A DNA stretch of 64,000 nucleotides from a virus (IMGVR_UViG_3300046028_006919:1-64000), one strand, 5' to 3'; shown: positions 25,239 through 63,644, counted from the stretch's first letter. Translations and numbers: made by a program. Notes: generated from the letters alone by a model not told the origin.

Positions 25239-25415
25239 TTATCTTGCATAATATATTTGGTCTTTTAAATTACTTTCATGATAATAATACCTTACCCATA
25301 AACCAAATTGTTCACCATTGATATAATTACCCATATTGCATAGATTCCCATTTGTCCAATACCATTCCCACAATCCGTGGCGTTGGCTTCTTCTATGTGG
25401 TCTTTTATCTTGCAT
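25239..25415 (-). CDS. MORN-like unit 20, 58 aa
   Basis: Start MQDKRPHRRSQRHGLWEWYW inside the end of unit 19 (11-nt overlap). Both MORN-like strands are present (RHGLWEWY, YINGEQFGLW). Ends QIYYAR, and the hinge ATGCAAGATAA survives at its stop although no unit follows; the next bases are a promoter. Confidence 0.85.
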   Translation of the reverse strand: MQDKRPHRRSQRHGLWEWYWTNGNLCNMGNYINGEQFGLWVRYYYHESNLKDQIYYAR

Positions 25416-25584
25416 AGTAATCAAATTCTATTCCAAGTTCATCAAAAAAAAGATATTCTACCAACCCTTTTATTTCGTTGTTTACATAATTACATTTATA
25501 GTAGAATTCTCCATTGGTTTGGTGCCAATATCCTTGTGCTCTTGCTTGTCCATCTGTTTGGTTTATTTTGTTATCTTGCTGCAT
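25405..25584 (-). CDS. MORN-like unit 19, 59 aa
   Basis: Start MQQDNKINQTDGQARAQGYW. Its overlap with unit 18 is 14 nt because of an extra codon-length insertion in the hinge (ATGCAGCAAGATAA). Second strand YVNNEIKGLVEYLFF is degenerate. Ends DYYAR. Confidence 0.8.
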   Translation of the reverse strand: MQQDNKINQTDGQARAQGYWHQTNGEFYYKCNYVNNEIKGLVEYLFFDELGIEFDYYAR

Positions 25585-25741
25585 ATTGTTTACGTATTTT
25601 ATTATTAAAATTGTGTTCAAAATATCCATACCATGCTCCGTTTATATAGTTGATTCTAAAAGATGGTTGACCGTTTCCATGGTATATTTCCCAATAACCA
25701 TGCGCTTCACCTTGTTCGTTAAGTGGTTTTTTATCTTGCAT
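25571..25741 (-). CDS. MORN-like unit 18, 56 aa
   Basis: MQDKKPLNEQGEAHGYWEIY ... YINGAWYGYFEHNF, ending QYAAR. Its first 28 codons are close to unit 17 (NEQGExHGYWEIYHxNGQPS), a recent duplication. Confidence 0.8.
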   Translation of the reverse strand: MQDKKPLNEQGEAHGYWEIYHGNGQPSFRINYINGAWYGYFEHNFNNKIRKQYAAR

Positions 25742-25979
25742 AATAACTTTTACCTATTGTTTTAATTTGTGGATAATTAGATTCACAGTATCCTATGAAA
25801 TCATTATTGACTATATTTACTTTATAATCTAATACGCCATCATCAAAATATTTTTCATAAAAACCACATATTTCTCCGTTACTGTATACTGTTTTAAAAG
25901 ATGGTTGACCGTTTTCATGATATATTTCCCAATAACCATGTCGTTCACCTTGTTCGTTAAGTGTGTTTTTATCTTGCAT
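25731..25979 (-). CDS. MORN-like unit 17, 82 aa
   Basis: MQDKNTLNEQGERHGYWEIY; long form with three MORN-like strands (HGYWEIYHENG, YSNGEICGFYEKY, IVNNDFIGYCESNY). Ends KSYYAR. Confidence 0.85.
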   Translation of the reverse strand: MQDKNTLNEQGERHGYWEIYHENGQPSFKTVYSNGEICGFYEKYFDDGVLDYKVNIVNNDFIGYCESNYPQIKTIGKSYYAR

Positions 25980-26139
25980 TATATATTAAAATAAGAGGGT
26001 TAGAAGATTTAATTTCTTCAAGACCTAATATAACACCATTGACATAGTTTCGTTTAAAATAACGTAGTTTATCGCTACTGTATTGTTCCCAATAGCCATT
26101 TCGTTGACCTCGTTCGTTATATGGTTCATTATCTGGCAT
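25969..26139 (-). CDS. MORN-like unit 16, 56 aa
   Basis: MPDNEPYNERGQRNGYWEQY ... YVNGVILGLEEI, ending IYNAR. H of the HG motif is replaced by N. Confidence 0.8.
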   Translation of the reverse strand: MPDNEPYNERGQRNGYWEQYSSDKLRYFKRNYVNGVILGLEEIKSSNPLILIYNAR

Positions 26140-26314
26140 AGTATGTTTTGGTTATTCGTTTGGTATATAAATTTTTTGCTTCACGGAAACCACATCGTTC
26201 ACCGTTAACATAGTTTGTTCTAGAACATAGACCACCGTCATGCCAATATAGAATCCATAGTCCGTGTCGTTCGCCTTGTGCGTTATGTGGTTCTTGTCCT
26301 TCTCTATGGTACAT
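26129..26314 (-). CDS. MORN-like unit 15, 61 aa
   Basis: Start MYHREGQEPHNAQGERHGLW. The hinge has a different sequence (ATGTACCATAG) yet keeps the 11-nt geometry, so unit 14 ends YHVP instead of YYAR. Ends KTYYAR. Confidence 0.85.
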   Translation of the reverse strand: MYHREGQEPHNAQGERHGLWILYWHDGGLCSRTNYVNGERCGFREAKNLYTKRITKTYYAR

Positions 26315-26495
26315 GATAAAATATTTCTCCGTTACCCCATTTTTCATGTCCGTATTCCACACCGTTGACATAATGACATTCATACCAGAAAGTACCATCT
26401 ATCTTGTGGTATATTACCCAATGACCATGACACTGTTTTTTTTCGTTTAGTGGCGCTAAGCTTTCTTCATTCATATATCTTATTGAGTCCTGCAT
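26304..26495 (-). CDS. MORN-like unit 14, 63 aa, first of block III
   Basis: Start MQDSIRYMNEESLAPLNEKK, 1-5 nt downstream of the promoter -7 region, so its mRNA is nearly leaderless. HGHWVIYHKIDG and YVNGVEYGHEKW follow. Ends EIFYHVP. Confidence 0.8.
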   Translation of the reverse strand: MQDSIRYMNEESLAPLNEKKQCHGHWVIYHKIDGTFWYECHYVNGVEYGHEKWGNGEIFYHVP

Positions 26496-26498
26496 AAT

Positions 26499-26531
26499 GC
26501 AAATATACAATTTATTGTTTTATCTTGCAAT
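26499..26531 (-). promoter_or_regulatory. Promoter inside the MORN-like array (block III)
   Basis: -33 TATTGCAAG, -7 TATATTTGC. The -33 region is the mutated hinge (TTGCAAGATAA) at the end of unit 13. Confidence 0.7.
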
Positions 26532-26690
26532 AAAACTTTTATTTAGATAAGAATTGTTTTGTGTTATCCAATAACCATATACACGACCATGGATATAATA
26601 TCCTTTGCTATATACATTATCAGCGTAAATGGTTTCCCAATAACCGTGACAGTCATTATCTTTGGTGACTTGATTTATTTTATTTTGCAT
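26520..26690 (-). CDS. MORN-like unit 13, 56 aa, last of block II
   Basis: MQNKINQVTKDNDCHGYWET ... YIHGRVYGYWITQ, ending SFIAR. At its end the hinge start codon is TTG rather than ATG, so overlap coupling stops here. Confidence 0.8.
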   Translation of the reverse strand: MQNKINQVTKDNDCHGYWETIYADNVYSKGYYIHGRVYGYWITQNNSYLNKSFIAR

Positions 26691-26844
26691 GGTATTCGTT
26701 AGAGATTAATTTTGTTTCTCTAATATATTGATAGTGGCCGCATATGGTGCCACCAATATATGTTTGTTTATACGATGACAAGCTCCATTGGCATGACCAA
26801 TCACCGTGTCGTTTTCCGTTCTTGTGACTTAGTTTATCTGGCAT
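26680..26844 (-). CDS. MORN-like unit 12, 54 aa
   Basis: MPDKLSHKNGKRHGDWSCQW ... YIGGTICGHYQYI, ending NEYHAK. The C-terminal K matches the hinge variant ATGCAAAATAA that starts unit 13 with MQNK. Confidence 0.85.
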   Translation of the reverse strand: MPDKLSHKNGKRHGDWSCQWSLSSYKQTYIGGTICGHYQYIRETKLISNEYHAK

Positions 26845-26998
26845 AATATTTTCTAAAAAGTTTTTCATTCTCACACAATTCCCATAGACCAAATCTAATA
26901 CCGTTTAGGTAATGACCCTCAAAATAACCTTCTTTAAGAACCAAAGACCATGGGCCATGATGTTGTCCTTTATCGTTAAAATTTCGTTTACCTCGCAT
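26834..26998 (-). CDS. MORN-like unit 11, 54 aa
   Basis: MRGKRNFNDKGQHHGPWSLV ... YLNGIRFGLWELC, ending RKYYAR. Confidence 0.85.
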   Translation of the reverse strand: MRGKRNFNDKGQHHGPWSLVLKEGYFEGHYLNGIRFGLWELCENEKLFRKYYAR

Positions 26999-27158
26999 AA
27001 TATTCTCTATCTTCTCTTCCATGCCAATCAAAGAAATAGTATCCGTAACGGACTCCGTTGATGTAATTGGTTATATACCATAAACTATCGCTGCACCAAT
27101 ATTTTTCCCAATACCCATGTTTTTGACCTAATTCATTATATGGCGTTTTATCTAGCAT
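26988..27158 (-). CDS. MORN-like unit 10, 56 aa
   Basis: MLDKTPYNELGQKHGYWEKY ... YINGVRYGYYFFDW, ending REYYAR. Closely similar to unit 4 (both MLDK-x-PYNEL). Confidence 0.85.
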   Translation of the reverse strand: MLDKTPYNELGQKHGYWEKYWCSDSLWYITNYINGVRYGYYFFDWHGREDREYYAR

Positions 27159-27324
27159 AGTATTCTTTTTTTGATGAACTGTTAGACCAGTCCCAATATT
27201 CAAAACAACCATATTCTAAACCGTTTATGAAGTATCCGTTAAACCATAGTCTATCGTTGCTGTGGTGTATTATCCAATACCCGTGGGCTTGTTTTTTTTC
27301 GTTATGTGGTTTTTTATCTTGCAT
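27148..27324 (-). CDS. MORN-like unit 9, 58 aa
   Basis: MQDKKPHNEKKQAHGYWIIH ... FINGLEYGCFEYW, ending KEYYAR. Confidence 0.85.
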   Translation of the reverse strand: MQDKKPHNEKKQAHGYWIIHHSNDRLWFNGYFINGLEYGCFEYWDWSNSSSKKEYYAR

Positions 27325-27562
27325 AGTATCGATTATCTAGTTGATTATCACCAAAGTGGTGTTCACCATACCCATGAAATTGACTATTTATGTAATTGAT
27401 TATGGAGATTAACTTACCGCTATTCCAATATCTTTCAATCTTACCGAAAGCGTAGCCATTTACATATAACCCTTTAAATTCCAGAACACCATTAGAGGCG
27501 TAATAAACTTCCCAATATCCGTGTTTTTGACCTTCTTTATTTGTTGGTTTTTTATCTTGCAT
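27314..27562 (-). CDS. MORN-like unit 8, 82 aa
   Basis: MQDKKPTNKEGQKHGYWEVY; long form with three MORN-like strands (YVNGYAFGKIERY, YINSQFHGYGEHHF). Ends NRYYAR. Confidence 0.85.
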   Translation of the reverse strand: MQDKKPTNKEGQKHGYWEVYYASNGVLEFKGLYVNGYAFGKIERYWNSGKLISIINYINSQFHGYGEHHFGDNQLDNRYYAR

Positions 27563-27731
27563 AATATTCTAATACTAACAATTTACCGTTATGGTTAAAA
27601 TTTTGATATAACCCGAATGCGTTTCCATTAATATAATGTAGCTTATACCATAGAGTACCATACATAGAATGGTAAGCTTCCCATAATCCATGTGCTTGTC
27701 TATTTTTGTTAAATGGTTTTTTATCTTGCAT
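27552..27731 (-). CDS. MORN-like unit 7, 59 aa
   Basis: MQDKKPFNKNRQAHGLWEAY ... YINGNAFGLYQNF, ending EYYAR. Confidence 0.85.
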   Translation of the reverse strand: MQDKKPFNKNRQAHGLWEAYHSMYGTLWYKLHYINGNAFGLYQNFNHNGKLLVLEYYAR

Positions 27732-27900
27732 AATATCTATTTTGGTCTAAATTACCGTTTGGGTCATATACCTTGCTATGACCAAATCTAAATCCGTTAA
27801 TGAAAAATGAATGCCATCTTATGTTGTTGTTACTCCATAAGTTTATCCATTCTCCATGACGTTCTTCATTAGCGTTACGTAGATTAATTTTATCTTTCAT
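27721..27900 (-). CDS. MORN-like unit 6, 59 aa, first of block II
   Basis: MKDKINLRNANEERHGEWIN ... FINGFRFGHSKVY, ending RYYAR. Its ATG lies immediately after the T tract of the preceding terminator, with no separate promoter, so expression needs read-through. Confidence 0.8.
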   Translation of the reverse strand: MKDKINLRNANEERHGEWINLWSNNNIRWHSFFINGFRFGHSKVYDPNGNLDQNRYYAR

Positions 27901-27902
27901 AA

Positions 27903-27936
27903 TAAAAAAAGGGTAGCTTTTGGCTACCCTTTGGTG
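27903..27936 (-). terminator. Terminator of the 27941-28174 gene, abutting array block II
   Basis: AAAGGGTAGC/GCTACCCTTT stem with a short loop and TTTTTTT on the minus strand. Confidence 0.9.
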
Positions 27937-27940
27937 TTTG

Positions 27941-28174
27941 TTAGTCCCAAGCGTTTTGTAGCTTTTTGGTTACTGGGTTCAACTCTTGTTGAACGTACTT
28001 GATAACGTGAGGTGCTTCTATTGCTATGGTCCCGTGTTCTCCGTGCAAAACTTGGCTGTTTTTACCAGCTTTGATTTTAAGGATGTTCTCATCGATTTTT
28101 TCAACTTCTACAACGTTAGTCATTGTGTGTGTGTTTGTACTTGGTTCAAGCACGATAGTCTTCTGATTTCCCAT
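27941..28174 (-). CDS. Hypothetical protein, 77 aa, paralogue of the 11700-11966 product
   Basis: Start MGNQKTIVLEPSTNTHTMTN. A beta-rich core (VVEVEKIDENILKIKAGKNS) and the carboxyl end QELNPVTKKLQNAWD shared with the 11.7-kb protein. It has its own promoter and terminator and interrupts the MORN-like array between units 5 and 6. Confidence 0.75.
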   Translation of the reverse strand: MGNQKTIVLEPSTNTHTMTNVVEVEKIDENILKIKAGKNSQVLHGEHGTIAIEAPHVIKYVQQELNPVTKKLQNAWD

Positions 28175-28207
28175 GTTTTTATTTTTAAATGGTTTGTTAT
28201 AATTACA

Positions 28208-28243
28208 ATACAAATATACTACTTAGTTTTTAATTGTGCAAAT
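28208..28243 (-). promoter_or_regulatory. Promoter of the 27941-28174 gene
   Basis: -33 ATTTGCACAA, -7 TATATTTG; the -33 region starts at the stop of unit 5. Confidence 0.8.
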
Positions 28244-28245
28244 TT

Positions 28246-28425
28246 TTATCGACAATAATAACTTTTTATTTTTGGTCGACCTTCAAACCAGCAAGTTATT
28301 TCACTATATCCATATGCTACATCGTTAACATAGTGCGAAGTTTCCCATGGTCGCCCATCATCACGATAGTCTTGAAATGGTCCATGTAGTTGTCCTTTTT
28401 CGTTTCTGGTATACTTATCTCGCAT
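28246..28425 (-). CDS. MORN-like unit 5, 59 aa, last of block I
   Basis: MRDKYTRNEKGQLHGPFQDY ... YVNDVAYGYSEIT, ending SYYCR. Its hinge is degenerate (TTGTCGATAA, no ATG), so no unit is coupled to its end. Confidence 0.8.
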   Translation of the reverse strand: MRDKYTRNEKGQLHGPFQDYRDDGRPWETSHYVNDVAYGYSEITCWFEGRPKIKSYYCR

Positions 28426-28591
28426 AGTATTCTTCATCTTCAATATCGTTATTTTTGTTTCTCCATATAAAGTACCCATACTTTACACCATTAAGATAAT
28501 AACCTATATAGAAAGCAACATCGTTGGACCAATATTCTTCCCAATGTCCGTGTTTTCGTTGTAATTCGTTATAGGGTCTTTTATCTAGCAT
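28415..28591 (-). CDS. MORN-like unit 4, 58 aa
   Basis: MLDKRPYNELQRKHGHWEEY ... YLNGVKYGYFIW, ending EEYYAR. Confidence 0.85.
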   Translation of the reverse strand: MLDKRPYNELQRKHGHWEEYWSNDVAFYIGYYLNGVKYGYFIWRNKNNDIEDEEYYAR

Positions 28592-28820
28592 AATATTTTT
28601 CATCAATTTCTTTGGTGAATTTTGTATAAATAAATTGTTTAGAATAACCATGAGCTCTATCATTGATGTATGATTCCATAAAGTTAAAACCACCATCAGC
28701 AAAATGTTTTATCCATTGTCCGTGACGTTGCCCTTTTTTGTTTCTTGGTATAACATCATTTTGATAAACATATTTTCTAGGTTCTCCATTTTCGTTTTTT
28801 GGTTCTAAATTATCTGGCAT
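28581..28820 (-). CDS. MORN-like unit 3, 79 aa
   Basis: MPDNLEPKNENGEPRKYVYQ then NKKGQRHGQWIKHF and YINDRAHGYSKQF; a ~20-residue N-terminal insertion duplicates the start motif. Ends EKYYAR. Confidence 0.85.
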   Translation of the reverse strand: MPDNLEPKNENGEPRKYVYQNDVIPRNKKGQRHGQWIKHFADGGFNFMESYINDRAHGYSKQFIYTKFTKEIDEKYYAR

Positions 28821-29004
28821 AATAATTATTATAATTTCCATCAATAGAACCTCTACCAAATCTCAAATGATGTCCAAATCGTTCACCGTTGATATATGGT
28901 CCAGAGAACCATAGCTCACCATTTGGTGAATATACTTCCCAATACCCATGACGACGATTTAGTTTGTTCTTGGGTCTCTTGCATTTTGGTTGTTTATATT
29001 GCAT
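28810..29004 (-). CDS. MORN-like unit 2, 64 aa
   Basis: MQYKQPKCKRPKNKLNRRHG then YWEVYSPNGELWFSG and YINGERFGHHLRF. Ends NNYYAR. Its MQYK start dictates that unit 1 ends YYAI. Confidence 0.85.
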   Translation of the reverse strand: MQYKQPKCKRPKNKLNRRHGYWEVYSPNGELWFSGPYINGERFGHHLRFGRGSIDGNYNNYYAR

Positions 29005-29167
29005 AATAATGTTTACCTTTTGATTTTAAACCTAAATAATAACATTCATAGTACCCATGTCGAACAGAACCAACAAAAAAAGCTTTGTACCATAGTTGAC
29101 CACCATTGTAGTATAGTTCTCTATAGAAGCTTTTATCTGTTAATATTATTGTTTTATTTTTTTCCAT
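28994..29167 (-). CDS. MORN-like unit 1, 57 aa, first of block I
   Basis: MEKNKTIILTDKSFYRELYY; divergent N-terminus, then GGQLWYKAFFVGSVRHGYYE, ending HYYAI. Starts just after a terminator, as unit 6 does. Confidence 0.8.
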   Translation of the reverse strand: MEKNKTIILTDKSFYRELYYNGGQLWYKAFFVGSVRHGYYECYYLGLKSKGKHYYAI

Positions 29168-29173
29168 AGTTTT

Positions 29174-29216
29174 AAAAAGAAAACCACACACCAATTACTA
29201 GCGTGTGGTTTTCAAA
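29174..29216 (-). terminator. Terminator of the 29233-30006 gene, abutting array block I
   Basis: GAAAACCACACGC pairs with GTGTGTGGTTTTC (one wobble), followed by TTTTT. Confidence 0.9.
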
Positions 29217-29232
29217 GGGAATAAAAAATTTA

Positions 29233-30006
29233 TTATGATTGTGCTACTAACAGACCAAAGTATTGTTCTTTGGTTAGTGATACCATTTCACCTTCTGGTT
29301 TCACATCTTCATCCATTTCAGTAAGCAAGATATCACCTTGGCGTTTCAATGCTTTGATATGTGGAATGATGTTTTTGTGAACGACAAACGTTGATGCGAT
29401 TGCGGTAAGTGGGTCGTCTTTGTATTGGTCGTCAATCCATAACCAATGTTCTTTGTTGGTTGATGTGCACCAGCATTTTACTGCGTATAGTGATTCATCA
29501 AGACCTAACTTCTTGCCCTCGATTTCGTGAGTTTCGTAGATGTTGTCATATTCTTCAACGCCAGTGAAATTACCCTCAGCATCATATTGTCTATGATTAA
29601 CTTTGACACCATCAGTTTTGATTCTTTTGGCACCCAACTCATTAATCATTTGAGGGATATCGATTGACGAGAATACAAGAGCTTGAAACTCTCTACCATC
29701 TAACTCAAAAGATTCTTTGAAAGTAAACGGTTCCACTGTATCATACATTTCAGCAAGGCTGTCGAAGAATTTTACGGTTTTATCGTAATCCTCTTCTGAT
29801 ACTTCTTTAAGACCAGCGATTTTATGTTCTGGGTATCCGTTAAGAAAAATGTTTTTCTTTACATTGATGAAACGATTCATAAATCTTTCATAGTTTGTAT
29901 GAACACCTTTAAGGTATTTTACCAATTCAGTTGGGGTACAACCTACCATTTGTTCTGTGTCAGTTTCGAAGTAGACACCATTGAATGCTGTGAAAATAAT
30001 TTTCAT
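29233..30006 (-). CDS. Hypothetical protein, 257 aa, paralogue of the 9435-10130 product
   Basis: Starts MKIIFTAFNGVYFETDTEQM. The C-terminal half contains LYAVKCWCTSTNKEHWLWID and ALKRQGDILLTEMDE, matching the 9.4-kb paralogue, and ends YFGLLVAQS. The N-terminal half differs. Strong promoter and terminator suggest substantial expression. Function unknown. Confidence 0.8.
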   Translation of the reverse strand: MKIIFTAFNGVYFETDTEQMVGCTPTELVKYLKGVHTNYERFMNRFINVKKNIFLNGYPEHKIAGLKEVSEEDYDKTVKFFDSLAEMYDTVEPFTFKESFELDGREFQALVFSSIDIPQMINELGAKRIKTDGVKVNHRQYDAEGNFTGVEEYDNIYETHEIEGKKLGLDESLYAVKCWCTSTNKEHWLWIDDQYKDDPLTAIASTFVVHKNIIPHIKALKRQGDILLTEMDEDVKPEGEMVSLTKEQYFGLLVAQS

Positions 30007-43908: not shown

Positions 43909-44027
43909 TGCCGAGGACTGGATTCGAACCAGCAATAGTACCATACTCACCAACTTTCGTTGACTTCAAGGATTCGAACCTCATCTCCCGTTTTCAGACG
44001 GGTGGTTTACCATTTCCCCACCTCGGC
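43909..44027 (-). tRNA. tRNA-like RNA B with two T-arm sequences
   Basis: A perfect 7-bp acceptor GCCGAGG/CCTCGGC plus discriminator A encloses a 119-nt RNA. The D arm is GGGGAAATGGTAAACC and the next arm CCCGT-CTGAAA-ACGGG has a 6-nt loop containing GAA. Then come AGG-TTCGAAT-CCT, a GNRA-capped hairpin TCAAC-GAAA-GTTGG, AGTA-TGG-TACT and a second T arm GCTGG-TTCGAAT-CCAGT. It looks like a tRNA(Phe)-like 5' part fused with the 3' part of another tRNA. No CCA. Confidence 0.6.
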
Positions 44028-55217: not shown

Positions 55218-55250
55218 ACAAATATACACATAAAATGTTAATTATACAAT
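55218..55250 (-). promoter_or_regulatory. Promoter of the 53599-55185 gene
   Basis: -33 TTGTATAATT, -7 TGTATATTTG. Confidence 0.7.
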
Positions 55251-56066
55251 ATTATCCTCAATAATTTGAATTACTGGAATCAAATTATACAAATATTCTT
55301 TTTCTTGCGTAAAAATTGGTATGTTGTAGTCTGGCAACCACTTGCTTCTTTGAACTGGTTCACCGTTTTGACCGTCAACCCAAATGGTTTGTTTCTTTAT
55401 AACAACACCTCTTTTGTATTTAACTTTGTAATCGTCCCAGTTGATACCTTTCTCTTTGAAAAGCATTTCTTGTTTTTCACTACCAGATAACCCATGTAAT
55501 TGGAAATGACTGAAATTAGCACTAGCAGCCATACTAACACTATTTCTAGTACAATCTTGTTGTCTCCAAAGGAAATAGTTAGAAACTTCTCTAAAGTCTG
55601 GAATAACAAACACCCTTGAATCGAACACAGCGTCAATCTCAGCAAAATCTCCACGAGTAATTTTTTCAAACAATTCTTCTGGGTTATATTTGAACGACCC
55701 CAACAATCTAAGCATTGTCTTGTTAAATGCTGCTGTAACTTTTGAAGCTGAAATGCTACATAGCTTTTGTACTTTACCATCAAACGGCAATTCAGCATCA
55801 ATATTCTCAATAGTAGAGAACACAAGGCTAATCTCGTCTGATTGCGTATAAGCAAATAACGGATTCAAATATTTACATAGTTCAACAGTAGCGGCATCCA
55901 TCACGTTGGATAGAATATCATCAAATGGTTTGTCAAACATTGTTGTATATTTGCTAAACCCTTTACCATCAAGTCTTATGATAACATAAGACCTATTCGG
56001 AATTTTAAAATTATAGCAATTTTCGTATTCTTTCATACGGTCGCTAAAACTAGTGTTTTTTGCCAT
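55242..56066 (-). CDS. Thg1-like 3'-5' RNA polymerase (tRNA 5'-end repair), 274 aa
   Basis: VIIRLDGKGFSKYTTMFDKP has the first Asp and Gly-Lys-Gly-Phe of the palm; FAYTQSDEISLVF has the second metal Asp-Glu pair; VFDSRVFVIPDFREVSNYFL and WRQQDCTRNSVSMAASANFS are the Thg1 signature R-x6-N and Q-x2-C-x-R-N-S. Thg1-like proteins add nucleotides to RNA 5' ends in the reverse (3'-5') direction, repairing 5'-truncated tRNAs. In this phage it could act on the aberrant tRNA-like RNAs or on host tRNAs cut by defence nucleases (inference). Confidence 0.92.
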   Translation of the reverse strand: MAKNTSFSDRMKEYENCYNFKIPNRSYVIIRLDGKGFSKYTTMFDKPFDDILSNVMDAATVELCKYLNPLFAYTQSDEISLVFSTIENIDAELPFDGKVQKLCSISASKVTAAFNKTMLRLLGSFKYNPEELFEKITRGDFAEIDAVFDSRVFVIPDFREVSNYFLWRQQDCTRNSVSMAASANFSHFQLHGLSGSEKQEMLFKEKGINWDDYKVKYKRGVVIKKQTIWVDGQNGEPVQRSKWLPDYNIPIFTQEKEYLYNLIPVIQIIEDNIV

Positions 56067-56079
56067 TTTTTTTTATTAT

Positions 56080-57063
56080 TTAAAATCTAGCTTTTTTAAG
56101 TCCTTCGTAGCTTGATTGACTGTTGATTGCTACAACAGCGTATCCAATTTGTGTTGCGACTGAAATTGATTTAATTTTACTCATACCAAAACCAATTGGA
56201 CCAGTACCCTTATCCAAAGAATCACTAATAACCAATTCGGTAAGAACTGATTTCTCAATACGACCCAATGCTGGCCCAGACAACACACCGTGGCTAATAA
56301 TCGCTCTTACACTGTTAGCACCAGCTTCCATGACAACCTCAGCCGCTTTACATAGTGTACCAGCGGTATCAACCATATCATCTAAGATGATAACGTCTTT
56401 GCCAGTTACATCACCAATGATAATCATTTCATCGATTACATTGGCTTGTTTACGCGTTTTATCCAACATAACGTAATTGATTGAAATATCGTGATACTTG
56501 GCTAGTTGGTCTTTCATACGTTTAACTCTTTTTCCAGAACCAGCATCAGGCCCGCACAATATTGTGTTTTCGTTGTAGATACTAGCAATGTAGTTATCGA
56601 ATACGTTTTTACCTTCCAAGTGTGTTACTGGAATATTGAAGAACCCTTGGATTTGGTCTGCGTGTAAATCAAACGTAATAACACCAGTAGCCCCACGATT
56701 TTCAATCATTTCAACCATCACCTTCGCACCGATTGGTCCACGTGATTGGTCTTTTTTGTCTTGACGAGCATAAGGGAAATAAGGTAAAATAGCAACAATT
56801 TCTTTAGCAGCAGCACGTTTGGCTGCATCTATAGCTAAATTTAACTTGATGATTTCATCAGAGTTATTTGGGCTAGTTAACAAATAAACTCTTTTACCTC
56901 TAATCGAATTTGTAAAGTCAACACATAATTCACCATCGGAAAATTTCTGTGAGTTGACAGTATCAATAACAATTGGGTCTTTTTTTATTTGTTTGATTGA
57001 GTTAAGGATAGCTTGGGCCAAATCTTGTCGACCATCAATTGCTATAAGGACTGATTCTAACAT
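56080..57063 (-). CDS. prs: Ribose-phosphate pyrophosphokinase (Prs) family; possible ADP-ribose-PP synthase
   Basis: 327 aa. FSDGELCVDFTNSIRGKRVY, LPYFPYARQDKKDQSRGPIG (ATP-binding loop), TFDLHADQIQGFF and the PRPP loop VIILDDMVDTAGTLCKAAEV are intact. Canonical Prs makes PRPP. In the published NARP1 phage system, a Prs-like enzyme (Adps) makes ADP-ribose pyrophosphate and a Nampt-like partner (Namat) joins it to nicotinamide, rebuilding NAD+. The Nampt-like gene lies at 62.1-63.6 kb. Which reaction applies cannot be decided from the motifs I can see. Confidence 0.92.
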   Translation of the reverse strand: MLESVLIAIDGRQDLAQAILNSIKQIKKDPIVIDTVNSQKFSDGELCVDFTNSIRGKRVYLLTSPNNSDEIIKLNLAIDAAKRAAAKEIVAILPYFPYARQDKKDQSRGPIGAKVMVEMIENRGATGVITFDLHADQIQGFFNIPVTHLEGKNVFDNYIASIYNENTILCGPDAGSGKRVKRMKDQLAKYHDISINYVMLDKTRKQANVIDEMIIIGDVTGKDVIILDDMVDTAGTLCKAAEVVMEAGANSVRAIISHGVLSGPALGRIEKSVLTELVISDSLDKGTGPIGFGMSKIKSISVATQIGYAVVAINSQSSYEGLKKARF

Positions 57064-57078
57064 ATCTTGTAATTTTTA

Positions 57079-57112
57079 ACAAAGATACAAAATAAAAAAT
57101 GAATAACCAAAT
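57079..57112 (-). promoter_or_regulatory. Promoter of prs
   Basis: -33 TTTGGTTATT, -7 TTGTATCTTTG. It lies in the terminator hairpin of the upstream gene. Confidence 0.75.
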
Positions 57113-57126
57113 GGTTATTCATCTTT
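57095..57126 (-). terminator. Terminator of the 57115-57288 gene
   Basis: GATGAATAACC/GGTTATTCATT stem and six T, overlapping the stop codon. Confidence 0.8.
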
Positions 57127-57288
57127 TTTTAATTTTTTGCTCAACCAATAGGCTCCATAGGCTATTGCAGCTGCTATGGCTATGTATTTCACAAGGTGAA
57201 CAAAGATAACCACACCAACAAATACCATCTTGAATATGATTATAGCTAGCAAAGCTGCTAGGAAAAATAAGATTATTTTAAGTTTCAT
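57115..57288 (-). CDS. Small membrane protein, 57 aa
   Basis: MKLKIILFFLAALLAIIIFK and VFVGVVIFVHLVKYIAIAAA give two to three membrane segments, with a basic end KKLKKDE. Not recognised. Confidence 0.65.
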   Translation of the reverse strand: MKLKIILFFLAALLAIIIFKMVFVGVVIFVHLVKYIAIAAAIAYGAYWLSKKLKKDE

Positions 57289-57302
57289 ATATTTATTTTT
57301 TT

Positions 57303-57662
57303 TTAGTTAATTTTTTTCCACACTCTATCATGCCATTTTGTTTTATATAACCCCAACTCGTAGTTTCCATTGTACAAAACAATATCCAACGCTGTTGGAA
57401 GTTCATTGTATAAATTATCCCACTCGGCTTTTTGTTCATCTGTATATTCAATTGTTTCTTCGGTGTTAAATGGGTTAAAGTTGGTTGGTTTACCATTTAA
57501 TATAACATCAATCGCCTCATACAGATTATCTTCACCAAATGGTGGGATATAATCATCACCATCGTTATGCATGTTTACTATAAAACCACCCTTCATACCC
57601 CATCGCAAGTTCTTCAACAGTTTTACATGTTCTTCTTTTAATTCAAATTTAATTACACTCAT
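57303..57662 (-). CDS. Hypothetical protein, 119 aa
   Basis: MSVIKFELKEEHVKLLKNLR; alpha/beta pattern with GEDNLYEAIDVILNGKPTNF. Its start overlaps the Sir2 stop by 1 nt, so it is in the Sir2 operon. Not recognised. Confidence 0.75.
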   Translation of the reverse strand: MSVIKFELKEEHVKLLKNLRWGMKGGFIVNMHNDGDDYIPPFGEDNLYEAIDVILNGKPTNFNPFNTEETIEYTDEQKAEWDNLYNELPTALDIVLYNGNYELGLYKTKWHDRVWKKIN

Positions 57663-58414
57663 TATTCGTCATTTTTATTATCTCCAACGGCTTGTACCAT
57701 TAGATTATTTACTAGTTCTGTAACACCTTCAACGGCACCTTTTTTGATGTATGTGATGTCTAATTCTGGGTATTCTAACCCCAAAGACTTTGTAGGTTCT
57801 GGGTCAACGAAATAAATTGGTATGTTTTTTTTGCATTTACTAAAAAACTCATAAGTATAACCAATATTCATACTAGTACCTATCACAATTATAATGTCAG
57901 CTTCTATAAACGCTTCCAAGGCGTTATAAAAGAAGAATGGATACTCACCAAACCAAACAATGTGTGGTCTTAACTGTGCACCATACTCTTCGTCTTTATC
58001 CCCCATATTTATATCGTTATAACCAATATCATAAACAGTTTGAGTTGCAACTAGGTTTGGGTTGTTCATACCAAAACATGTTCTTGCTTTGGTCAACTCA
58101 CCATGCAAATGGATTATATTAGTTGAACCAGCTCTTTCCAATAAATCATCTACGTTTTGTGTAATGTGTATTACATCATATTTTGATTCAAGTGTGACCA
58201 ATGCATTGTGAGCATCATTAGGTTGAACAGTTGGGAGTTGTCTACGTCTAGCATTGTAAAAATCCAACACCTGAGAGCGGTCTTTTCTCCAACCTTCTGG
58301 AGTAGCTACTTCATCAATCTTGAAATTTTCCCATAATCCATTAGAATCTCTAAAAGTGTCAATACCAGATTCTTTACTAACACCAGCACCAGTAAATATT
58401 ACTATTTTTTTCAT
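57662..58414 (-). CDS. Sir2-family NAD-dependent deacylase (CobB/SIRT5-like), 250 aa
   Basis: GAGVSKESGIDTFRDSNGLW (NAD-binding), TQNVDDLLERAG and HLHGEL (catalytic His), ADIIIVIGTSMNIGYTYEF are intact. FYNARRRQL contains the Y-x2-R acyl-specificity motif of SIRT5/CobB. The zinc-binding cysteines are not visible; only one Cys (TKARTCFG) remains, so the zinc module is degenerate or replaced. Possible roles: reversal of host acylation or NAD-linked signalling. Surrounded by other NAD/ADP-ribose genes. Confidence 0.9.
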   Translation of the reverse strand: MKKIVIFTGAGVSKESGIDTFRDSNGLWENFKIDEVATPEGWRKDRSQVLDFYNARRRQLPTVQPNDAHNALVTLESKYDVIHITQNVDDLLERAGSTNIIHLHGELTKARTCFGMNNPNLVATQTVYDIGYNDINMGDKDEEYGAQLRPHIVWFGEYPFFFYNALEAFIEADIIIVIGTSMNIGYTYEFFSKCKKNIPIYFVDPEPTKSLGLEYPELDITYIKKGAVEGVTELVNNLMVQAVGDNKNDE

Positions 58415-58713
58415 TATCTACCGCTTATTAACTTTAAGATTTGAACTAAGATTTTTAACATGATGAAAAACCCACCAACAAATCCGAAATTATACCAAGC
58501 ACCATTGTTATGTATCGCATATACAGCAATATCATCCCAGATAAGACTACCAATAAAGCTTGGAAACATTATCATACCGTGCCAAGTCCCACCCCAAAAA
58601 CCATATATTTGTTCGTTAGGGTTGGTAAACGTAACATGTGCAACATCAGCACAGCTTATAGTCAACATTGCAACCAGCAACACTAACAAAATTGTAAATA
58701 TTCTATTTTTCAT
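58414..58713 (-). CDS. Lipoprotein-like membrane protein, 99 aa
   Basis: Start MKNRIFTILLVLLVAMLTIS then C (lipobox LTISC). A Trp/Gly-rich middle (FWGGTWHGMIMFPSFIGSLI) and a C-terminal membrane segment (FVGGFFIMLKILVQILKL). Longer upstream frame is less likely. Confidence 0.7.
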   Translation of the reverse strand: MKNRIFTILLVLLVAMLTISCADVAHVTFTNPNEQIYGFWGGTWHGMIMFPSFIGSLIWDDIAVYAIHNNGAWYNFGFVGGFFIMLKILVQILKLISGR

Positions 58714-58723
58714 TTGTATTTTA

Positions 58724-59167
58724 TTATTTATTCTCGCCATAATGGTTCAACATCAAATCATAAACCTCTTGCCATTCTGTTTCTGGGTTGAACCCAGCTT
58801 TGTCTTCAAACAAAACATTCATATAAGGTTTTTTATTGTAATTCCCATAACCGTTTGGGTCAGTGGGAACCTCTGGGTTCTCATTTACATATTTGAAATG
58901 AATATCGTTATCAACGAACAATTTTTGATACTCAACTATTTCATGTGGGTGAGAACACGTATACAAGAACATAACAACTTCTGATATCTTACCCAATAAT
59001 TGTAATGTTTCTTTTGCCATCGGATAAAACTCGTCAGGCGTGTTACCGTATTGGTAATTGGGTTTAAGTATGGTACCATGGATATCAAACGCCCAAAACG
59101 TTCTATCCCAATTTCTTTTTTCTTTCAGTTCGAAATGATTAATTTCTATTGCTCTTTTTACACTCAT
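58724..59167 (-). CDS. HAD-superfamily protein, 147 aa
   Basis: RTFWAFDIHGTILKPNYQYG supplies motif I (F-D-x-H-G-T), VVMFLYTCSHPHEIVEYQKL a motif II-like T, and YMNVLFEDKAGFNPETEWQE a late acidic motif. A phage HAD variant; substrate unknown. It overlaps its upstream neighbour by 4 nt. Confidence 0.8.
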   Translation of the reverse strand: MSVKRAIEINHFELKEKRNWDRTFWAFDIHGTILKPNYQYGNTPDEFYPMAKETLQLLGKISEVVMFLYTCSHPHEIVEYQKLFVDNDIHFKYVNENPEVPTDPNGYGNYNKKPYMNVLFEDKAGFNPETEWQEVYDLMLNHYGENK

Positions 59168-59343
59168 TGGAAAATTTTATTATAATCTAACACTTTCATC
59201 GAATAATAGGTATTACCTTGTTTAAAGAAAACCGTATTACCAAACTGTGATTTATTTACTGGTGACCATTTTTTAACAACACTGATAGCTATGTTTATTT
59301 CACCTTCGTTGGCAACACCAACTTTAACTGTTTCTTCAGCCAT
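59164..59343 (-). CDS. Hypothetical protein, 59 aa
   Basis: MAEETVKVGVANEGEINIAI ... KIFQ then TGA, which overlaps the next ATG. Beta-rich, single small domain. Not recognised. Confidence 0.7.
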   Translation of the reverse strand: MAEETVKVGVANEGEINIAISVVKKWSPVNKSQFGNTVFFKQGNTYYSMKVLDYNKIFQ

Positions 59344-59344
59344 T

Positions 59345-59911
59345 TTAAATATTTAAAAAACTTATTATCTTTTCTTTGACACCAGATTGTTTGATACCTT
59401 CGTATAGTCTTGGTGTGTGAACAAAATTCGTTAAACCACCGTTTGTTTCGCCGTCTATGTTTATGTATTCACCTAGTTGCATATCATCAACAGCTACCCA
59501 AGCATCAACTGAGTTATTCTTTAACCAATGGTTGATTTCAAGGATTCTAGCACGTTCATACCATCCTTTATAGTGGAATAAAACCTCACTATATTCGTCA
59601 AAATCCTTAAGATTTGGTGTTAGCGCTATGGGTTTTTTAATAATACCTTGCAACCCATAAAACTCACCTAACTCTTCAAGATTAGCCCATCTCTTCCAAT
59701 CAGACGAAACAACAATCTCAGCACCAGTTTCTTCTAGGATTTCATTAAGAACCTTGATTGCTTTAGAATTGAAATTGTCGAATCGTTCTATGACTGGTAT
59801 AGACCCGTCAGCTATTGTTTGTCCGACACTTCTGTTTTGTTTCTTGAATCTGCTACCAAATTCACTACCCAAACAAATTACGCCGTCATGGTCTAAAAAT
59901 AATGCTTTCAT
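59345..59911 (-). CDS. HAD_SAK_2-like (RNA-repair-associated HAD), 188 aa
   Basis: MKALFLDHDGVICLGSEFGS is motif I; ETGAEIVVSSDWKRWANLEE is the V-S-S-D-W variant of motif II typical of the HAD group found in Swiss-army-knife RNA-repair proteins; RARILEINHWLKNN and AWVAVDDMQLGEYI match the late region. Likely a nucleic-acid-end or nucleotide phosphatase. First gene of the 59911-57303 run. Confidence 0.8.
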   Translation of the reverse strand: MKALFLDHDGVICLGSEFGSRFKKQNRSVGQTIADGSIPVIERFDNFNSKAIKVLNEILEETGAEIVVSSDWKRWANLEELGEFYGLQGIIKKPIALTPNLKDFDEYSEVLFHYKGWYERARILEINHWLKNNSVDAWVAVDDMQLGEYINIDGETNGGLTNFVHTPRLYEGIKQSGVKEKIISFLNI

Positions 59912-59913
59912 AT

Positions 59914-59947
59914 TACAAAGATACGAATTTATTTTGAAAAATCAAAT
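59914..59947 (-). promoter_or_regulatory. Promoter of the 59911 operon
   Basis: -33 TTTGATTTTT, -7 CGTATCTTTG. Confidence 0.75.
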
Positions 59948-60604
59948 ATTTTTTCTTTTTTTTACTTCATTTAATCTGTCCCAATGATATCCACCAGCAG
60001 TTTTTTGTTTACCATCAAGACAACCTTGAATATCACCTTTACCTAACCATCTTTTAGCTTCGTTAATACTTTTAAAAATTTGATTAGTTTCAACACACTT
60101 AATAATAGAATAAACTCTTTTTTCTAAATTAGCTTTTGCGTTATTTTGTTTATGTTCTTCAGTATGTGTTTTACCAGAATGAGATATTTTAAGTTTTTCT
60201 TTAGTTTCTTTTGAATGATTATATTCACCTTTTTGTCTATAAACTCTTTTTTTTCGACTAACCATTTGTTTTTTAACATATTCTGGGTCAGACCATAGTT
60301 TTTTACTTACTTTAGATAAATGTTCAATAGATGATGTTAAACCACCATCACCACCCTTAGTTATATTGTAACCAACCAAAATATCTGTAGAATTATATTC
60401 TTTTATCCAGTATTGTTCTCTCGCTTTAAGTTCATCTTTATTTAAACATGTTTCAAGTATTTCTTTTTTAAAATTTTCTTTACCATATTTTTTAATAGAC
60501 CTAGTTATTAATAAACCAGAACCAATGTAATTTGGTGTATTTTTTTCATCTTTACCAATGTAAATTTTACCATTAATTAAATTTGTTGTTTTATATATTA
60601 TCAT
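59942..60604 (-). CDS. GIY-YIG homing endonuclease with NUMOD, 220 aa
   Basis: N-terminal GIY-YIG domain (IIYKTTNLINGKIYIGKDEK; PNYIGSG; E-x-N in EQYWIKEYNS). The region HSKETKEKLKISHSGKTHTE is a NUMOD3-type DNA-binding repeat, and VETNQIFKSINEAKRWLGKG resembles NUMOD1/IENR1. It is free-standing between the HAD_SAK gene and the macro/NADAR genes. Preceded by the TATTTATTAATAAA motif. Confidence 0.9.
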   Translation of the reverse strand: MIIYKTTNLINGKIYIGKDEKNTPNYIGSGLLITRSIKKYGKENFKKEILETCLNKDELKAREQYWIKEYNSTDILVGYNITKGGDGGLTSSIEHLSKVSKKLWSDPEYVKKQMVSRKKRVYRQKGEYNHSKETKEKLKISHSGKTHTEEHKQNNAKANLEKRVYSIIKCVETNQIFKSINEAKRWLGKGDIQGCLDGKQKTAGGYHWDRLNEVKKRKNI

Positions 60605-60607
60605 ATT

Positions 60608-60632
60608 ATTTGTTTATTAATAAATATCACGA
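60608..60632 (-). promoter_or_regulatory. TATTTATTAATAAA motif upstream of the GIY-YIG gene
   Basis: CGTGATATTTATTAATAAAC, 8 nt before the ATG. Confidence 0.5.
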
Positions 60633-60667
60633 ACCATATAAAAAAACAACTATAGGGTTAATTTTTA

Positions 60668-61336
60668 TTAAGGTTTATAATTAACAATCGTCACATCTTC
60701 ACCATTCATTTCTTCTTGGATAATTCTTTCAATAATATCCCAATCACCGTTTGCTAATCCAGCACCTATTTTTGGTAAACCAAACTTTTTACCTTTAAAT
60801 TTAATTACCATATTTTGTATAGACAATCTTAATGCATCATATTTAACCATAACTTCATTATAGTGCGTTTTGTTAAAATGGTACATACCATACAAGTTAA
60901 CAACGATAGGTGTTGTAGTTTCAGTGTAAGTTATTGTACCCAATTTTGATTGGTCCCCCGATGTGGTTGTACAATCAGCAGCATAAGCTTCTGGAAACTT
61001 GTGTTTAATTTGTGGGGCTATACCTGCACCCATCACGCAAAAACAATTACAGCAATGGGCTATAACGTCGTAGTTATCGGCATCCCTAACTAGGTCGCCA
61101 TCAATGTATTTTATCATAGTTAATATTGGTGTTGTAAATTTACGGTACAAGAACACAGTTTCAGCGCTGTATCTTCTTCTACCGTTTATAATTGTTGGAT
61201 TTAAAACCGTATCGATTGTTTTTAATCGATGTTTTCCGATTTTAAGAATGTGTTTTACTATTCCGCTTCTTAGCGTTTTAAATTTCCCAGTCTTTTTGAT
61301 TAGAAAATCAGTTTTTTGGTAATTGTCTTTTAACAT
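60668..61336 (-). CDS. Macrodomain protein with N-terminal extension, 222 aa
   Basis: From residue ~73, MIKYIDGDLVRDADNYDVIA, HCCNCFCVMGAGIAPQIKHK and GLPKIGAGLANGDWDIIERI are the macrodomain ADP-ribose-binding loops. The first ~72 residues are basic and of unknown fold. Macrodomains of this ALC1/DarG-related type can remove ADP-ribose from DNA or protein. Start overlaps the NADAR stop (TAATG). Confidence 0.9.
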   Translation of the reverse strand: MLKDNYQKTDFLIKKTGKFKTLRSGIVKHILKIGKHRLKTIDTVLNPTIINGRRRYSAETVFLYRKFTTPILTMIKYIDGDLVRDADNYDVIAHCCNCFCVMGAGIAPQIKHKFPEAYAADCTTTSGDQSKLGTITYTETTTPIVVNLYGMYHFNKTHYNEVMVKYDALRLSIQNMVIKFKGKKFGLPKIGAGLANGDWDIIERIIQEEMNGEDVTIVNYKP

Positions 61337-61818
61337 TATTTGCTTTCTTCGTCAAATTTATCTCTAACTTTCATAATAGCCTCACCAAGCCAGTTGGTTC
61401 CTTGCCATTTTGTTTTGTCGTTAATGTCTGGGTGTGATTCGTGCATACCAATACCCCAGATTTTATCTTCTGGACTAGCTTCAACTATTTCTAAATTACC
61501 ACTTCGTAACAATTCTTTTTTCATCAAAGGATTTTGACTAAACTTAGCGTAGTTAGCCTCATACACAACTTCACGACATATAGCTTCCCATTTGTCCTTG
61601 TTAAAGTTTTTAACCTTACGTCCGAGAGCTTTTTGTTCTTTAGGTCCTTTGGCATTCATTATTTTGTTGTAAGAATCAACGTCTTCAAACAATAAAGATT
61701 TTTTGGCCATCATGTATTGCTCACAACAGTTGTATTCAACACCATCGATTGTAAAGTTTGAGGGGTACCACTGACTGAATGTGCCACCCCAAAAGAATAT
61801 ATATTTATCTGTTTTCAT
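61336..61818 (-). CDS. NADAR-family N-glycosidase, 160 aa
   Basis: FFWGGTFSQWYPSNFTIDGV, YNCCEQYMMAKKSLLF, GRKVKNFNKDKWEAICREVV and SPEDKIWGIGMHESHPDIND are classic NADAR (YbiA) motifs. NADAR proteins cleave the glycosidic bond of ADP-ribosylated compounds; some reverse DarT-type guanine ADP-ribosylation of DNA. Transcribed with the macrodomain gene, so together they can erase ADP-ribose marks (inference). Confidence 0.92.
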   Translation of the reverse strand: MKTDKYIFFWGGTFSQWYPSNFTIDGVEYNCCEQYMMAKKSLLFEDVDSYNKIMNAKGPKEQKALGRKVKNFNKDKWEAICREVVYEANYAKFSQNPLMKKELLRSGNLEIVEASPEDKIWGIGMHESHPDINDKTKWQGTNWLGEAIMKVRDKFDEESK

Positions 61819-61840
61819 AATTACTAAATTAAAAATTCTA

Positions 61841-62086
61841 TTATTTTTTTGTTTTTATTAATGTTGGTTTAAAAATTAATCTTAGTCCGAACTCTTCGGA
61901 ACCATTAGTGAGCACATCAATCTCATGTCTTGATAAAATATTGTTTTCAACAAATTCAGTCATTAGAACATATTTGTTGCAAACTGCTTTATATAAAACC
62001 ATTAGTTTATCATTTTCCATTTTAAAAAATATATCATCACCATGTTGCGTTTTCTTAACAATTGGTTTTAACATGTTTTTACCCAT
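61841..62086 (-). CDS. Hypothetical protein, 81 aa
   Basis: MGKNMLKPIVKKTQHGDDIF; ends LIFKPTLIKTKK. The start overlaps the nadV stop by 8 nt. Not recognised. Confidence 0.75.
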   Translation of the reverse strand: MGKNMLKPIVKKTQHGDDIFFKMENDKLMVLYKAVCNKYVLMTEFVENNILSRHEIDVLTNGSEEFGLRLIFKPTLIKTKK

Positions 62087-63644
62087 TTAATTTAGCTCGT
62101 TCTCTTACTTCTTCAAAGGTCCATTCTTTAAGGATTTCACCATTTCTGAACACTTCAACCAGTTCGTCGGTTACACTATCGAAATCAGCATCCATCGATG
62201 TAACAGTTCTGTATGTACCATCTTCATTCTTAACCAATTTAAGTTTACCTTGTTTTGATTTTTTAAATGATTTGGTAATGTTGCCATCAGCATCCATTTC
62301 AGTTGGTGATTTAACAATGTTTCTTTCTTCACCATTAACGATTGCAAAACACGCTTTGGTGGCGAAGTTTTGTGTGTCGCGGTTGATGTCAGCTTGTAAC
62401 AATTTACCACCCATACCCAACGCTAAGTTCTCTGGTGAAATACCTTCAAAGTCTAACATTTCATAGATTTCTTTAATTGATTCTAAGTTCACACCATCAC
62501 CTTGGATAACACGCACTTGTGGTGGCAATACTTTGTAACCTTTATCATTCACAGTATATCCGAATTTATCGAACAATATGTGGAAAATCTCTCTTAATGA
62601 ATTGATTACGTGACCTGAGTCAGGTCTGATAACCAATTGATTACCTGGCTCACTTGGTCGTGATAATATAAGGTCAATAAGGTCTTGACCCCAATATTGT
62701 GAACATGCTCTAAAAATGTTGTAAGAATCAGACACACAAGCCACCAAACCAGTTGGGAACATGGTCAACACTTTTCTCATCATTTCCAATTCACCCTCTT
62801 CACCTTTAAGGGTCATGATAGAGTGTTCTGTTGCTGGAATAGATAAACCATAAATGATTTCTGTGTTGTAAATTTCTCTAATCATCTTAGAAGCAATTAC
62901 AGTATCTGAACCCTTGAAATTCACCAAGTGCGCTGAACCACCAATCTTAGCTGATTGAACACTTGATACGCCACGGAACCCAAAGTCATTCAACACAAAG
63001 TCAACCAAGAACTCACGTAACGCAGTGTCATAAGACGTACATTTTTGGAACGCAGAATCAACAATCTTTCTTACTTCTCTAGAAAGAGTAGCAACCGTAA
63101 TAGGGTACCATACTTGAAGCAAGATTGACTCTAAGAAGTTTGTCAACCAAGCACATTCTGGGTCAAGACTTTCAATTGTAAACAACACGTTTTTGGTTTC
63201 AACGACAGTCCCTTCTGGAACAGCTTTGATACTGATAGGTAATTTACCATCATATTTGTCAACGATATAATCAAACTTGCTTCTGTCAAATACATCATCA
63301 CGACCGAAGACACCTAATTTGGTACCTAAGTATTCGTAAGCTTCATCAACTTCTTCTTTTACGATTGCAATACCCTCAAGGTATTGTTTAAGGATAATTT
63401 GTAGACCGTAAAATACAGTGGTATTAAATTTACCACCTCTAGATTCCAAATATGAAATCATTTTGGTCATTTCAACACCGTAGAATCTGTGGTGTGAATA
63501 TTTGTAAGCATCGCTACACAAGATAAGGTTATCTGGTTTAACAAGTACTTTTGATAATACTTTTTGGATTGATTTGATATCATTCAAATCAGCGTTGGCT
63601 AACGCTCTCTCTAGTCTTCTGACTAAGTTTCTTTGTATACTCAT
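62079..63644 (-). CDS. nadV: Nicotinamide phosphoribosyltransferase family (NadV/Nampt; possible Namat), 521 aa
   Basis: NLILCSDAYKYSHHRFYGVE, MISYLESRGGKFNTTVFYGL, DFGFRGVSSVQSAKIGGSAH, VIRPDSGHVINSLREIFHIL and GMGGKLLQADINRDTQNFAT are Nampt landmarks including the substrate-binding Asp and the PRPP site. A ~38-residue N-terminal helical extension is present. Canonical Nampt makes NMN from nicotinamide and PRPP. In NARP1 phages a Nampt homologue joins nicotinamide to ADP-ribose-PP. Partner prs-like gene is 5 kb away. Confidence 0.93.
   Translation of the reverse strand: MSIQRNLVRRLERALANADLNDIKSIQKVLSKVLVKPDNLILCSDAYKYSHHRFYGVEMTKMISYLESRGGKFNTTVFYGLQIILKQYLEGIAIVKEEVDEAYEYLGTKLGVFGRDDVFDRSKFDYIVDKYDGKLPISIKAVPEGTVVETKNVLFTIESLDPECAWLTNFLESILLQVWYPITVATLSREVRKIVDSAFQKCTSYDTALREFLVDFVLNDFGFRGVSSVQSAKIGGSAHLVNFKGSDTVIASKMIREIYNTEIIYGLSIPATEHSIMTLKGEEGELEMMRKVLTMFPTGLVACVSDSYNIFRACSQYWGQDLIDLILSRPSEPGNQLVIRPDSGHVINSLREIFHILFDKFGYTVNDKGYKVLPPQVRVIQGDGVNLESIKEIYEMLDFEGISPENLALGMGGKLLQADINRDTQNFATKACFAIVNGEERNIVKSPTEMDADGNITKSFKKSKQGKLKLVKNEDGTYRTVTSMDADFDSVTDELVEVFRNGEILKEWTFEEVRERAKLNG

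What the first reader, a model, noticed from the sequence alone, without database searches (positions are those of the whole stretch)
25239..29167. Twenty tandem MORN-like mini-genes with out-of-frame 11-nt overlaps
Twenty short genes (54-82 codons) occur head to tail, several below a 60-aa cutoff. Each carries two or three MORN_2-like strands (HGxWxxY, Y[IV]NGxxxG). Eighteen of the twenty are joined to a neighbour by the same overlap geometry, which implies translational coupling through the whole block. Such a large coupled family of near-identical-length proteins is not something I recognise from any described phage system.
Basis: partly seen in the sequence, partly recalled or inferred. 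Interest (0 to 1): 0.9.

Follow-up and report, generated by a model that had tools for sequence, protein, structure and literature searches.

The report
Coupled MORN mini-gene array in phage
A piece of a huge Bacteroidota-type phage genome carries twenty small related MORN-like genes head to tail, each starting inside the end of the one before; relatives have similar arrays whose ends stay put while the middle is rebuilt quickly, which suggests a phage-made set of small variable binding proteins of unknown target.

Summary
On the minus strand at 29167..25239 lie 20 homologous genes (54-82 codons) in three runs, with 17 junctions: 16 are 11-nt overlaps (consensus ATGCNAGATAA, giving ...YYAR* upstream and M[Q/P/L/R]DK downstream) and one is 14 nt. 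The proteins are divergent MORN_2-like units with a confident four-strand sheet model. The same unit and junction occur in four other IMG/VR records. A wider search found a second type: tandem MORN_2 mini-genes joined by 4-nt ATGA overlaps in seven more viral contigs, three of which share a huge-phage marker gene with the window. Between two close relatives the flanks and array ends are conserved but the interior is turned over (20 versus 11 units). Units evolve under weak purifying selection (dN/dS 0.22-0.49 against 0.03-0.16 for neighbours). Different junctions in different lineages point to selection for stop-start proximity (translational coupling), not a frameshifted polyprotein. Runs A and B sit directly behind a conserved gene plus terminator hairpin; run C has its own Bacteroidota-type promoter. 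Best reading: a birth-and-death repertoire of separately translated small beta-sheet binding proteins, most likely against variable host proteins (inferred). Target and function remain untested.

The parts
28994..29167 (-). u1, MORN-like unit, 57 aa, most divergent; run A
28810..29004 (-). u2, 64 aa, 11-nt overlap with u1
28581..28820 (-). u3, 79 aa, 11-nt overlap
28415..28591 (-). u4, 58 aa, 11-nt overlap; orthologue in G001 (65% aa)
28246..28425 (-). u5, 59 aa, 11-nt overlap, end of run A; orthologue in G001 (72%)
27941..28174 (-). 77-aa non-MORN gene set between u5 and u6, 97% identical and in the same place in G001 (dN/dS 0.03)
28211..28241 (-). Bacteroidota-type promoter (TTG-N20-TATATTTG) of the 77-aa gene
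27908..27932 (-). intrinsic terminator hairpin plus T-run just before the u6 start codon; conserved in G001
27721..27900 (-). u6, 59 aa, start of run B
27552..27731 (-). u7, 59 aa, 11-nt overlap
27314..27562 (-). u8, 82 aa (one more MORN repeat), 11-nt overlap
27148..27324 (-). u9, 58 aa, 11-nt overlap; lead sequence of the structure model
26988..27158 (-). u10, 56 aa, 11-nt overlap
26834..26998 (-). u11, 54 aa, 11-nt overlap (ATGCGAGGTAA)
26680..26844 (-). u12, 54 aa, 11-nt overlap
26520..26690 (-). u13, 56 aa, 11-nt overlap, end of run B; 3' end is a ghost junction TTGCAAGATAA
26500..26530 (-). Bacteroidota-type promoter for run C (TTG-N20-TATATTTG), overlapping the end of u13
26304..26495 (-). 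u14, 63 aa, start of run C
26129..26314 (-). u15, 61 aa, 11-nt overlap with different letters (ATGTACCATAG)
25969..26139 (-). u16, 56 aa, 11-nt overlap
25731..25979 (-). u17, 82 aa (extra repeat), 11-nt overlap
25571..25741 (-). u18, 56 aa, 11-nt overlap with u17
25405..25584 (-). u19, 59 aa, 14-nt overlap with u18
25239..25415 (-). u20, 58 aa, 11-nt overlap; orthologue in G001 (89%); its end keeps ATGCAAGATAA with no unit after it
29179..29213 (-). intrinsic terminator hairpin about 12 nt before the u1 start codon; conserved in G001
29233..30006 (-). 257-aa gene of unknown function upstream of run A, 98% identical in G001 (dN/dS 0.04), with a Bacteroidota-type promoter starting at 30062

Best explanation
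This is a birth-and-death array of small, separately translated MORN_2-type proteins carried by a lineage of huge phages. Shown: the array, its homology, the fixed overlaps, the recurrence in other phage records, the fast interior turnover and protein-level purifying selection. Inferred: each ribosome that ends a unit restarts on the AUG just before the stop codon, so one message gives many small proteins in similar amounts; runs A and B are reached by read-through of a terminator behind a conserved gene, run C has its own promoter. Each product is a capped mini-sheet (N-cap P.N..G..HGYWE, conserved core W/Y/N-G/G, C-cap YYAR) with variable residues alternating with the core. The most likely job is a repertoire of cytoplasmic binding modules (inhibitors, decoys or antitoxin-like proteins) aimed at variable host proteins, kept diverse by unit gain, loss and divergence, as in bacterial homogeneous polyimmunity loci.
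For: Homology and geometry. Same unit and 11-nt junction in G001, G002, G003, G004: 40 such junctions in G000-G002, one with a GTG start. Second junction type: 64 ATGA-coupled ends in other viral contigs, MORN_2 above the Pfam cut-off in four of six proteins tested. Shared huge-phage gene phrog_1745 in seven of eleven records. Turnover: flanks 79-92% DNA identity, ends u4/u5/u20 conserved, interior not; 20 versus 11 units; degenerate units in G001. Selection: orthologue dN/dS 0.46, 0.41, 0.22, 0.49 against 0.04, 0.03, 0.16 for neighbours. Fold: pLDDT 88.6, four-strand sheet; best solved matches SET7/9 and other MORN proteins; best viral match a 56-aa 'MORN variant' of an uncultured Caudovirales phage. 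Entropy: core G15, W17, Y32, N34, G39, Y55, A57 against variable 19, 22, 25, 37, 41, 43-46, 51-52. Promoters and terminators. Polyimmunity analogy: PMC3482391.
Against: No expression data. No target or partner is known; no unit matches a defence or counter-defence family (only a stray hit at 0.0075). dN/dS below 1 shows constraint, not positive selection. The start-codon conservation test is confounded: uncoupled ends also keep a T-ending codon. MORN sheets often serve structural roles, so binding to host targets is not the only option.
Confidence: 0.5

Rival explanations
1. Structural heteropolymer: the units are sheet segments that assemble edge to edge into a long MORN fibre or a scaffold in the virion or infected cell, and coupling serves ordered co-translational assembly.
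For: MORN units are open-edged single sheets; coupled translation gives similar amounts; relatives carry longer proteins with two to eight repeats.
Against: Number and order of units differ between close relatives (20 versus 11), which suits a strict assembly poorly; the N and C caps are conserved in every unit; no virion gene was recognised next to the array.
Confidence: 0.2
2. Near-neutral tandem expansion: the array is mostly a by-product of unequal recombination in a large genome, the short overlap being merely the copied junction, with weak selection on a few units.
For: Elevated dN/dS, pseudogenised or truncated units in G001, junction inherited by duplication.
Against: All 20 window units are open; purifying selection on four orthologues; core residues kept across three genomes; arrays kept in many phages with two different junctions; stop codons differ between coupled ends (all 64 TGA) and uncoupled ends (19 TAA, 15 TGA, 2 TAG).
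Confidence: 0.22
3. One long MORN polyprotein made by programmed frameshifting at each junction.
For: The 11- and 14-nt overlaps both require the same shift (+1), so a read-through product is formally possible.
Against: No slippery sequence; serial shifts would yield almost no full product; the ATGA arrays would need the other phase; each junction carries a start codon.
Confidence: 0.03
4. YwqK-type antitoxins: the units neutralise a specific class of host or rival toxin.
For: Bacterial MORN_2 proteins are often annotated as YwqK-type antitoxins (own knowledge); tandem immunity paralogues exist in Bacteroidota (PMC3482391).
Against: No toxin among the neighbours scanned; no NCBIfam antitoxin hit; MORN is not mentioned in the part of that survey that is held.
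Confidence: 0.05

Closest known systems
MORN_2 repeat proteins (PF07661), bacterial and in giant viruses
   Same: Repeat motif GxWxxY..G.L..KG.Y.NG; single-layer sheet; expanded families in large viruses
   Different: Usually several to many repeats in one long protein, as in the seven Bacteroidota hits (open frames of 148-277 aa) and a Helicobacter equorum prophage (13 matches; one gene of 400 codons); here split into capped mini-genes with fixed overlaps, below the Pfam cut-off
Homogeneous polyimmunity loci (Zhang et al. 2012, PMC3482391)
   Same: Tandem same-strand arrays of one family, number and type varying between close relatives
   Different: Described in bacteria with families such as SUKH and Imm11; here in a phage, MORN-type, no known toxin link, and joined by fixed overlaps
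MORN variant proteins A0A6J5M5P7, A0A6J5M5J6, A0A6J5M6D9 of uncultured Caudovirales phage (BFVD)
   Same: 56, 84 and 180 aa; the first is 42% identical to the unit with TM-score 0.85
   Different: Database entries only; genome context not available here
SET7/9 N-terminal MORN sheet (1muf, 1n6c)
   Same: Among the best solved fold matches: Z 5.6, rmsd 2.1 over 55 residues
   Different: Part of a eukaryotic histone methyltransferase; no shared function implied

Membership tests
MORN_2 (PF07661) | Score above the curated gathering cut-off | tested here: not met
   Best 24.4 bits against 29.6 in the window; met by four of six ATGA-array homologues, up to 117.8 bits
MORN_2 (PF07661) | MORN-type antiparallel sheet | tested here: met
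   AF2 model pLDDT 88.6, strands 15-20, 26-33, 36-44, 51-56; SET7/9 and radial-spoke MORN matches at Z about 5.6; Z of this size is only moderate
MORN_2 (PF07661) | Sequence homology to accepted members | tested here: met
   Profile A3 finds the MORN_2-positive proteins of the ATGA arrays at E down to 1e-55
Homogeneous polyimmunity locus | Tandem same-strand paralogues of one family | tested here: met
Homogeneous polyimmunity locus | Number and type vary between close relatives | tested here: met
   20 versus 11 units between syntenic flanks
Homogeneous polyimmunity locus | Members are immunity proteins for polymorphic toxins | not testable with these tools
   No antitoxin, immunity or defence family match; needs experiment
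YwqK-type antitoxin | Toxin gene beside it | tested here: not met
   No toxin domain in the neighbouring genes scanned between 23159 and 30524
Translationally coupled genes | Start codon within or next to the preceding stop | tested here: met
   17 of 17 within-run junctions here, 64 ATGA junctions in relatives
Translationally coupled genes | Downstream translation depends on upstream termination | not testable with these tools
   Needs a reporter or ribosome profiling

The most novel reading that the evidence does not exclude
Huge phages of Bacteroidota-type hosts carry a dedicated, rapidly rebuilt repertoire of dozens of coupled MORN mini-proteins that act as a modular anti-defence or host-takeover binder library, with coupling by short overlaps present in at least two forms.
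Probability: 0.3. Interest if true: 0.85.

Novelty: new variant of a known kind. Interest (0 to 1): 0.64.

Why it matters
If the units are a diversifying binder repertoire, these arrays point to phage proteins in an arms race and give a ready series of natural variants on one scaffold to test against host defences. They also ask how a ribosome can be passed through eight genes in a row, in a phylum that mostly lacks Shine-Dalgarno initiation (own knowledge). Short genes of this kind are easily dropped by a 60-aa cut-off and break assemblies: MORN repeats were 37 times more frequent in long-read than in assembled marine data (PMC9238414).

Tried and rejected
Frameshifted polyprotein: rejected on phase, lack of slippery sites and presence of start codons. 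Start-codon conservation as proof of coupling (40 of 40 coupled ends T-ending at codon -3 while the neighbouring Tyr is TAC 20, TAT 18): withdrawn as proof because the uncoupled ends in the same table also end in T. Mosaic units by recombination: the split scan was dominated by length differences, not informative. INPHARED searches with units, the 77-aa and the 257-aa gene: no true relative. The 634 and 642 kb phages LR745206 and LR756502, best tblastn hits of the window's RNase R: no array. 395 Bacteroidota genomes: only single matches in longer open frames at E<=1e-7.

Full report
What is there. The window is part of a 76,474-base IMG/VR virus record. Its genes include RNase R, a sigma factor, NAMPT and PRPP synthetase and a tRNA-His guanylyltransferase; the best tblastn matches of RNase R are 634 and 642 kb phages. 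Fifty-six minus-strand and nine plus-strand sites fit the Bacteroidota promoter TTG-N18-21-TANNTTTG, against 6.3 on the minus strand in simulated sequence, so a Bacteroidota host is likely (inference).

The array. Twenty units run on the minus strand from 29167 to 25239. Run A is u1-u5, run B u6-u13, run C u14-u20. Sixteen of the 17 within-run junctions overlap by 11 nt and one by 14 nt. The consensus ATGCNAGATAA serves as ...Ala-Arg-stop in one frame and Met-x-Asp-Lys in the next. The free base N is silent for Ala but changes residue 2 of the next protein (Q, P, L, R), so the C-terminal Ala-Arg looks the more constrained side (what the sequence shows). At u14/u15 the letters are ATGTACCATAG, but the geometry is the same.

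The protein. All units align. Pfam MORN_2 is the only repeated hit but stays under its cut-off. With a 47-row alignment AlphaFold2 gives pLDDT 88.6 and four strands; Foldseek and VIA-align place it with SET7/9 and axonemal MORN proteins and, among viruses, with a 56-aa MORN variant of an uncultured Caudovirales phage (42% identity). Invariant or nearly invariant are G15, W17, N34, G39, Y55 and A57; positions 19, 22, 25, 37, 41, 43-46 and 51-52 are highly variable, alternating with core positions within strands.

Relatives. Junction-pattern scans of IMG/VR and profile checks found the same family in four more records: G001 (362 kb), G002 (38 kb, about 17 units plus five elsewhere), G003 (93 kb) and G004 (306 kb). 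Searching with subsets of the family then uncovered arrays in seven further viral contigs: units of 54, 58, 78, 83, 107 aa and more, differing mostly by whole repeats, with tails such as YYI, FYL or YYL and a 4-nt ATGA overlap at 64 ends. One 115 kb contig has 136 repeat matches. phrog_1745 occurs in G000, G001, G003, G004, G408, G409 and G411, so most of these belong to one extended huge-phage lineage or share its genes. In 395 Bacteroidota genomes no comparable array was seen at E<=1e-7.

Evolution. G000 and G001 share the 257-aa gene upstream (98% aa), the 77-aa gene inside the array (97%) and the 57-aa gene downstream (76%). Between these, u4, u5 and u20 have clear orthologues (65, 72, 89%), u9 a likely one (62%), and the rest do not. 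G001 has 11 units, one of them without a start, and a 28-codon remnant MQDK...VYIAR at its end. Orthologue dN/dS is 0.22-0.49 against 0.03-0.16 for the neighbours. This is birth and death with constraint.

Expression. The start codons of u1 and u6 lie about 12 and 8 nt behind intrinsic terminator hairpins that follow the conserved 257-aa and 77-aa genes; both arrangements are kept in G001 with changed letters. Run C begins at a promoter overlapping the end of u13. Hence runs A and B would be made by terminator read-through, probably at low level, and run C on its own (inference). The 77-aa gene with promoter and terminator sits at a unit junction, so it looks inserted there.

Mechanism. Two different short overlaps, in different phases, in different lineages, argue that stop-start closeness is what is kept; that is the signature of termination-reinitiation coupling. 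It does not prove it. The likely role, a repertoire of small binders against variable host proteins, rests on the variable residue set, fast turnover and the likeness to homogeneous polyimmunity loci (PMC3482391). Structural polymer and near-neutral expansion remain open.

Novelty. No paper found describes such arrays; the library lacks most subscription journals. MORN repeats are known to be over-represented in long-read viral data (PMC9238414). I rate it a new variant of a known kind: known repeat fold, known idea of tandem paralogue arrays, new combination and host.

Noticed in passing
window 43909-44027 (-): Rfam tRNA match of 119 nt with about 49 extra bases between anticodon arm and T arm, including a second T-arm-like GGTTCGAATCC; ARAGORN did not call it. 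Possibly a duplicated or interrupted tRNA.
   Followed up: partly
window 27908-28241: Promoter, 77-aa gene and terminator set at a unit junction; gene 97% conserved in G001 with no match in phage records.
   Followed up: partly
G408 (IMGVR_UViG_3300031963_008158), about 77-115 kb: 136 MORN repeat matches in several ATGA-coupled arrays, far larger than the array in the window.
   Followed up: partly
L199:4863-6267, L198:3518-5979: Uncoupled MORN proteins in the relatives carry other C-terminal tails (such as ...LTLSDIANKLGVDV...IKE or ...EMFPIF), as if a tag replaced the YYI cap.
   Followed up: no
L021:10941-11024 and L021:12154-12294: Decayed units in G001: a 28-codon remnant MQDK...VYIAR and a unit whose start is lost.
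   Followed up: partly
G004 end (306138-306463): The 306 kb contig ends about 140 nt after its last MORN unit, suggesting that arrays break assemblies.
   Followed up: no
window 55242-63644: Genes for NAMPT, PRPP synthetase and a Thg1-like tRNA-His guanylyltransferase lie close together, suggesting NAD salvage and tRNA repair by the phage.
   Followed up: no
L172:2363-3562: Helicobacter equorum prophage BK070118 has one gene of 400 codons at the best of its 13 matches to a unit consensus, perhaps the unsplit counterpart.
   Followed up: no
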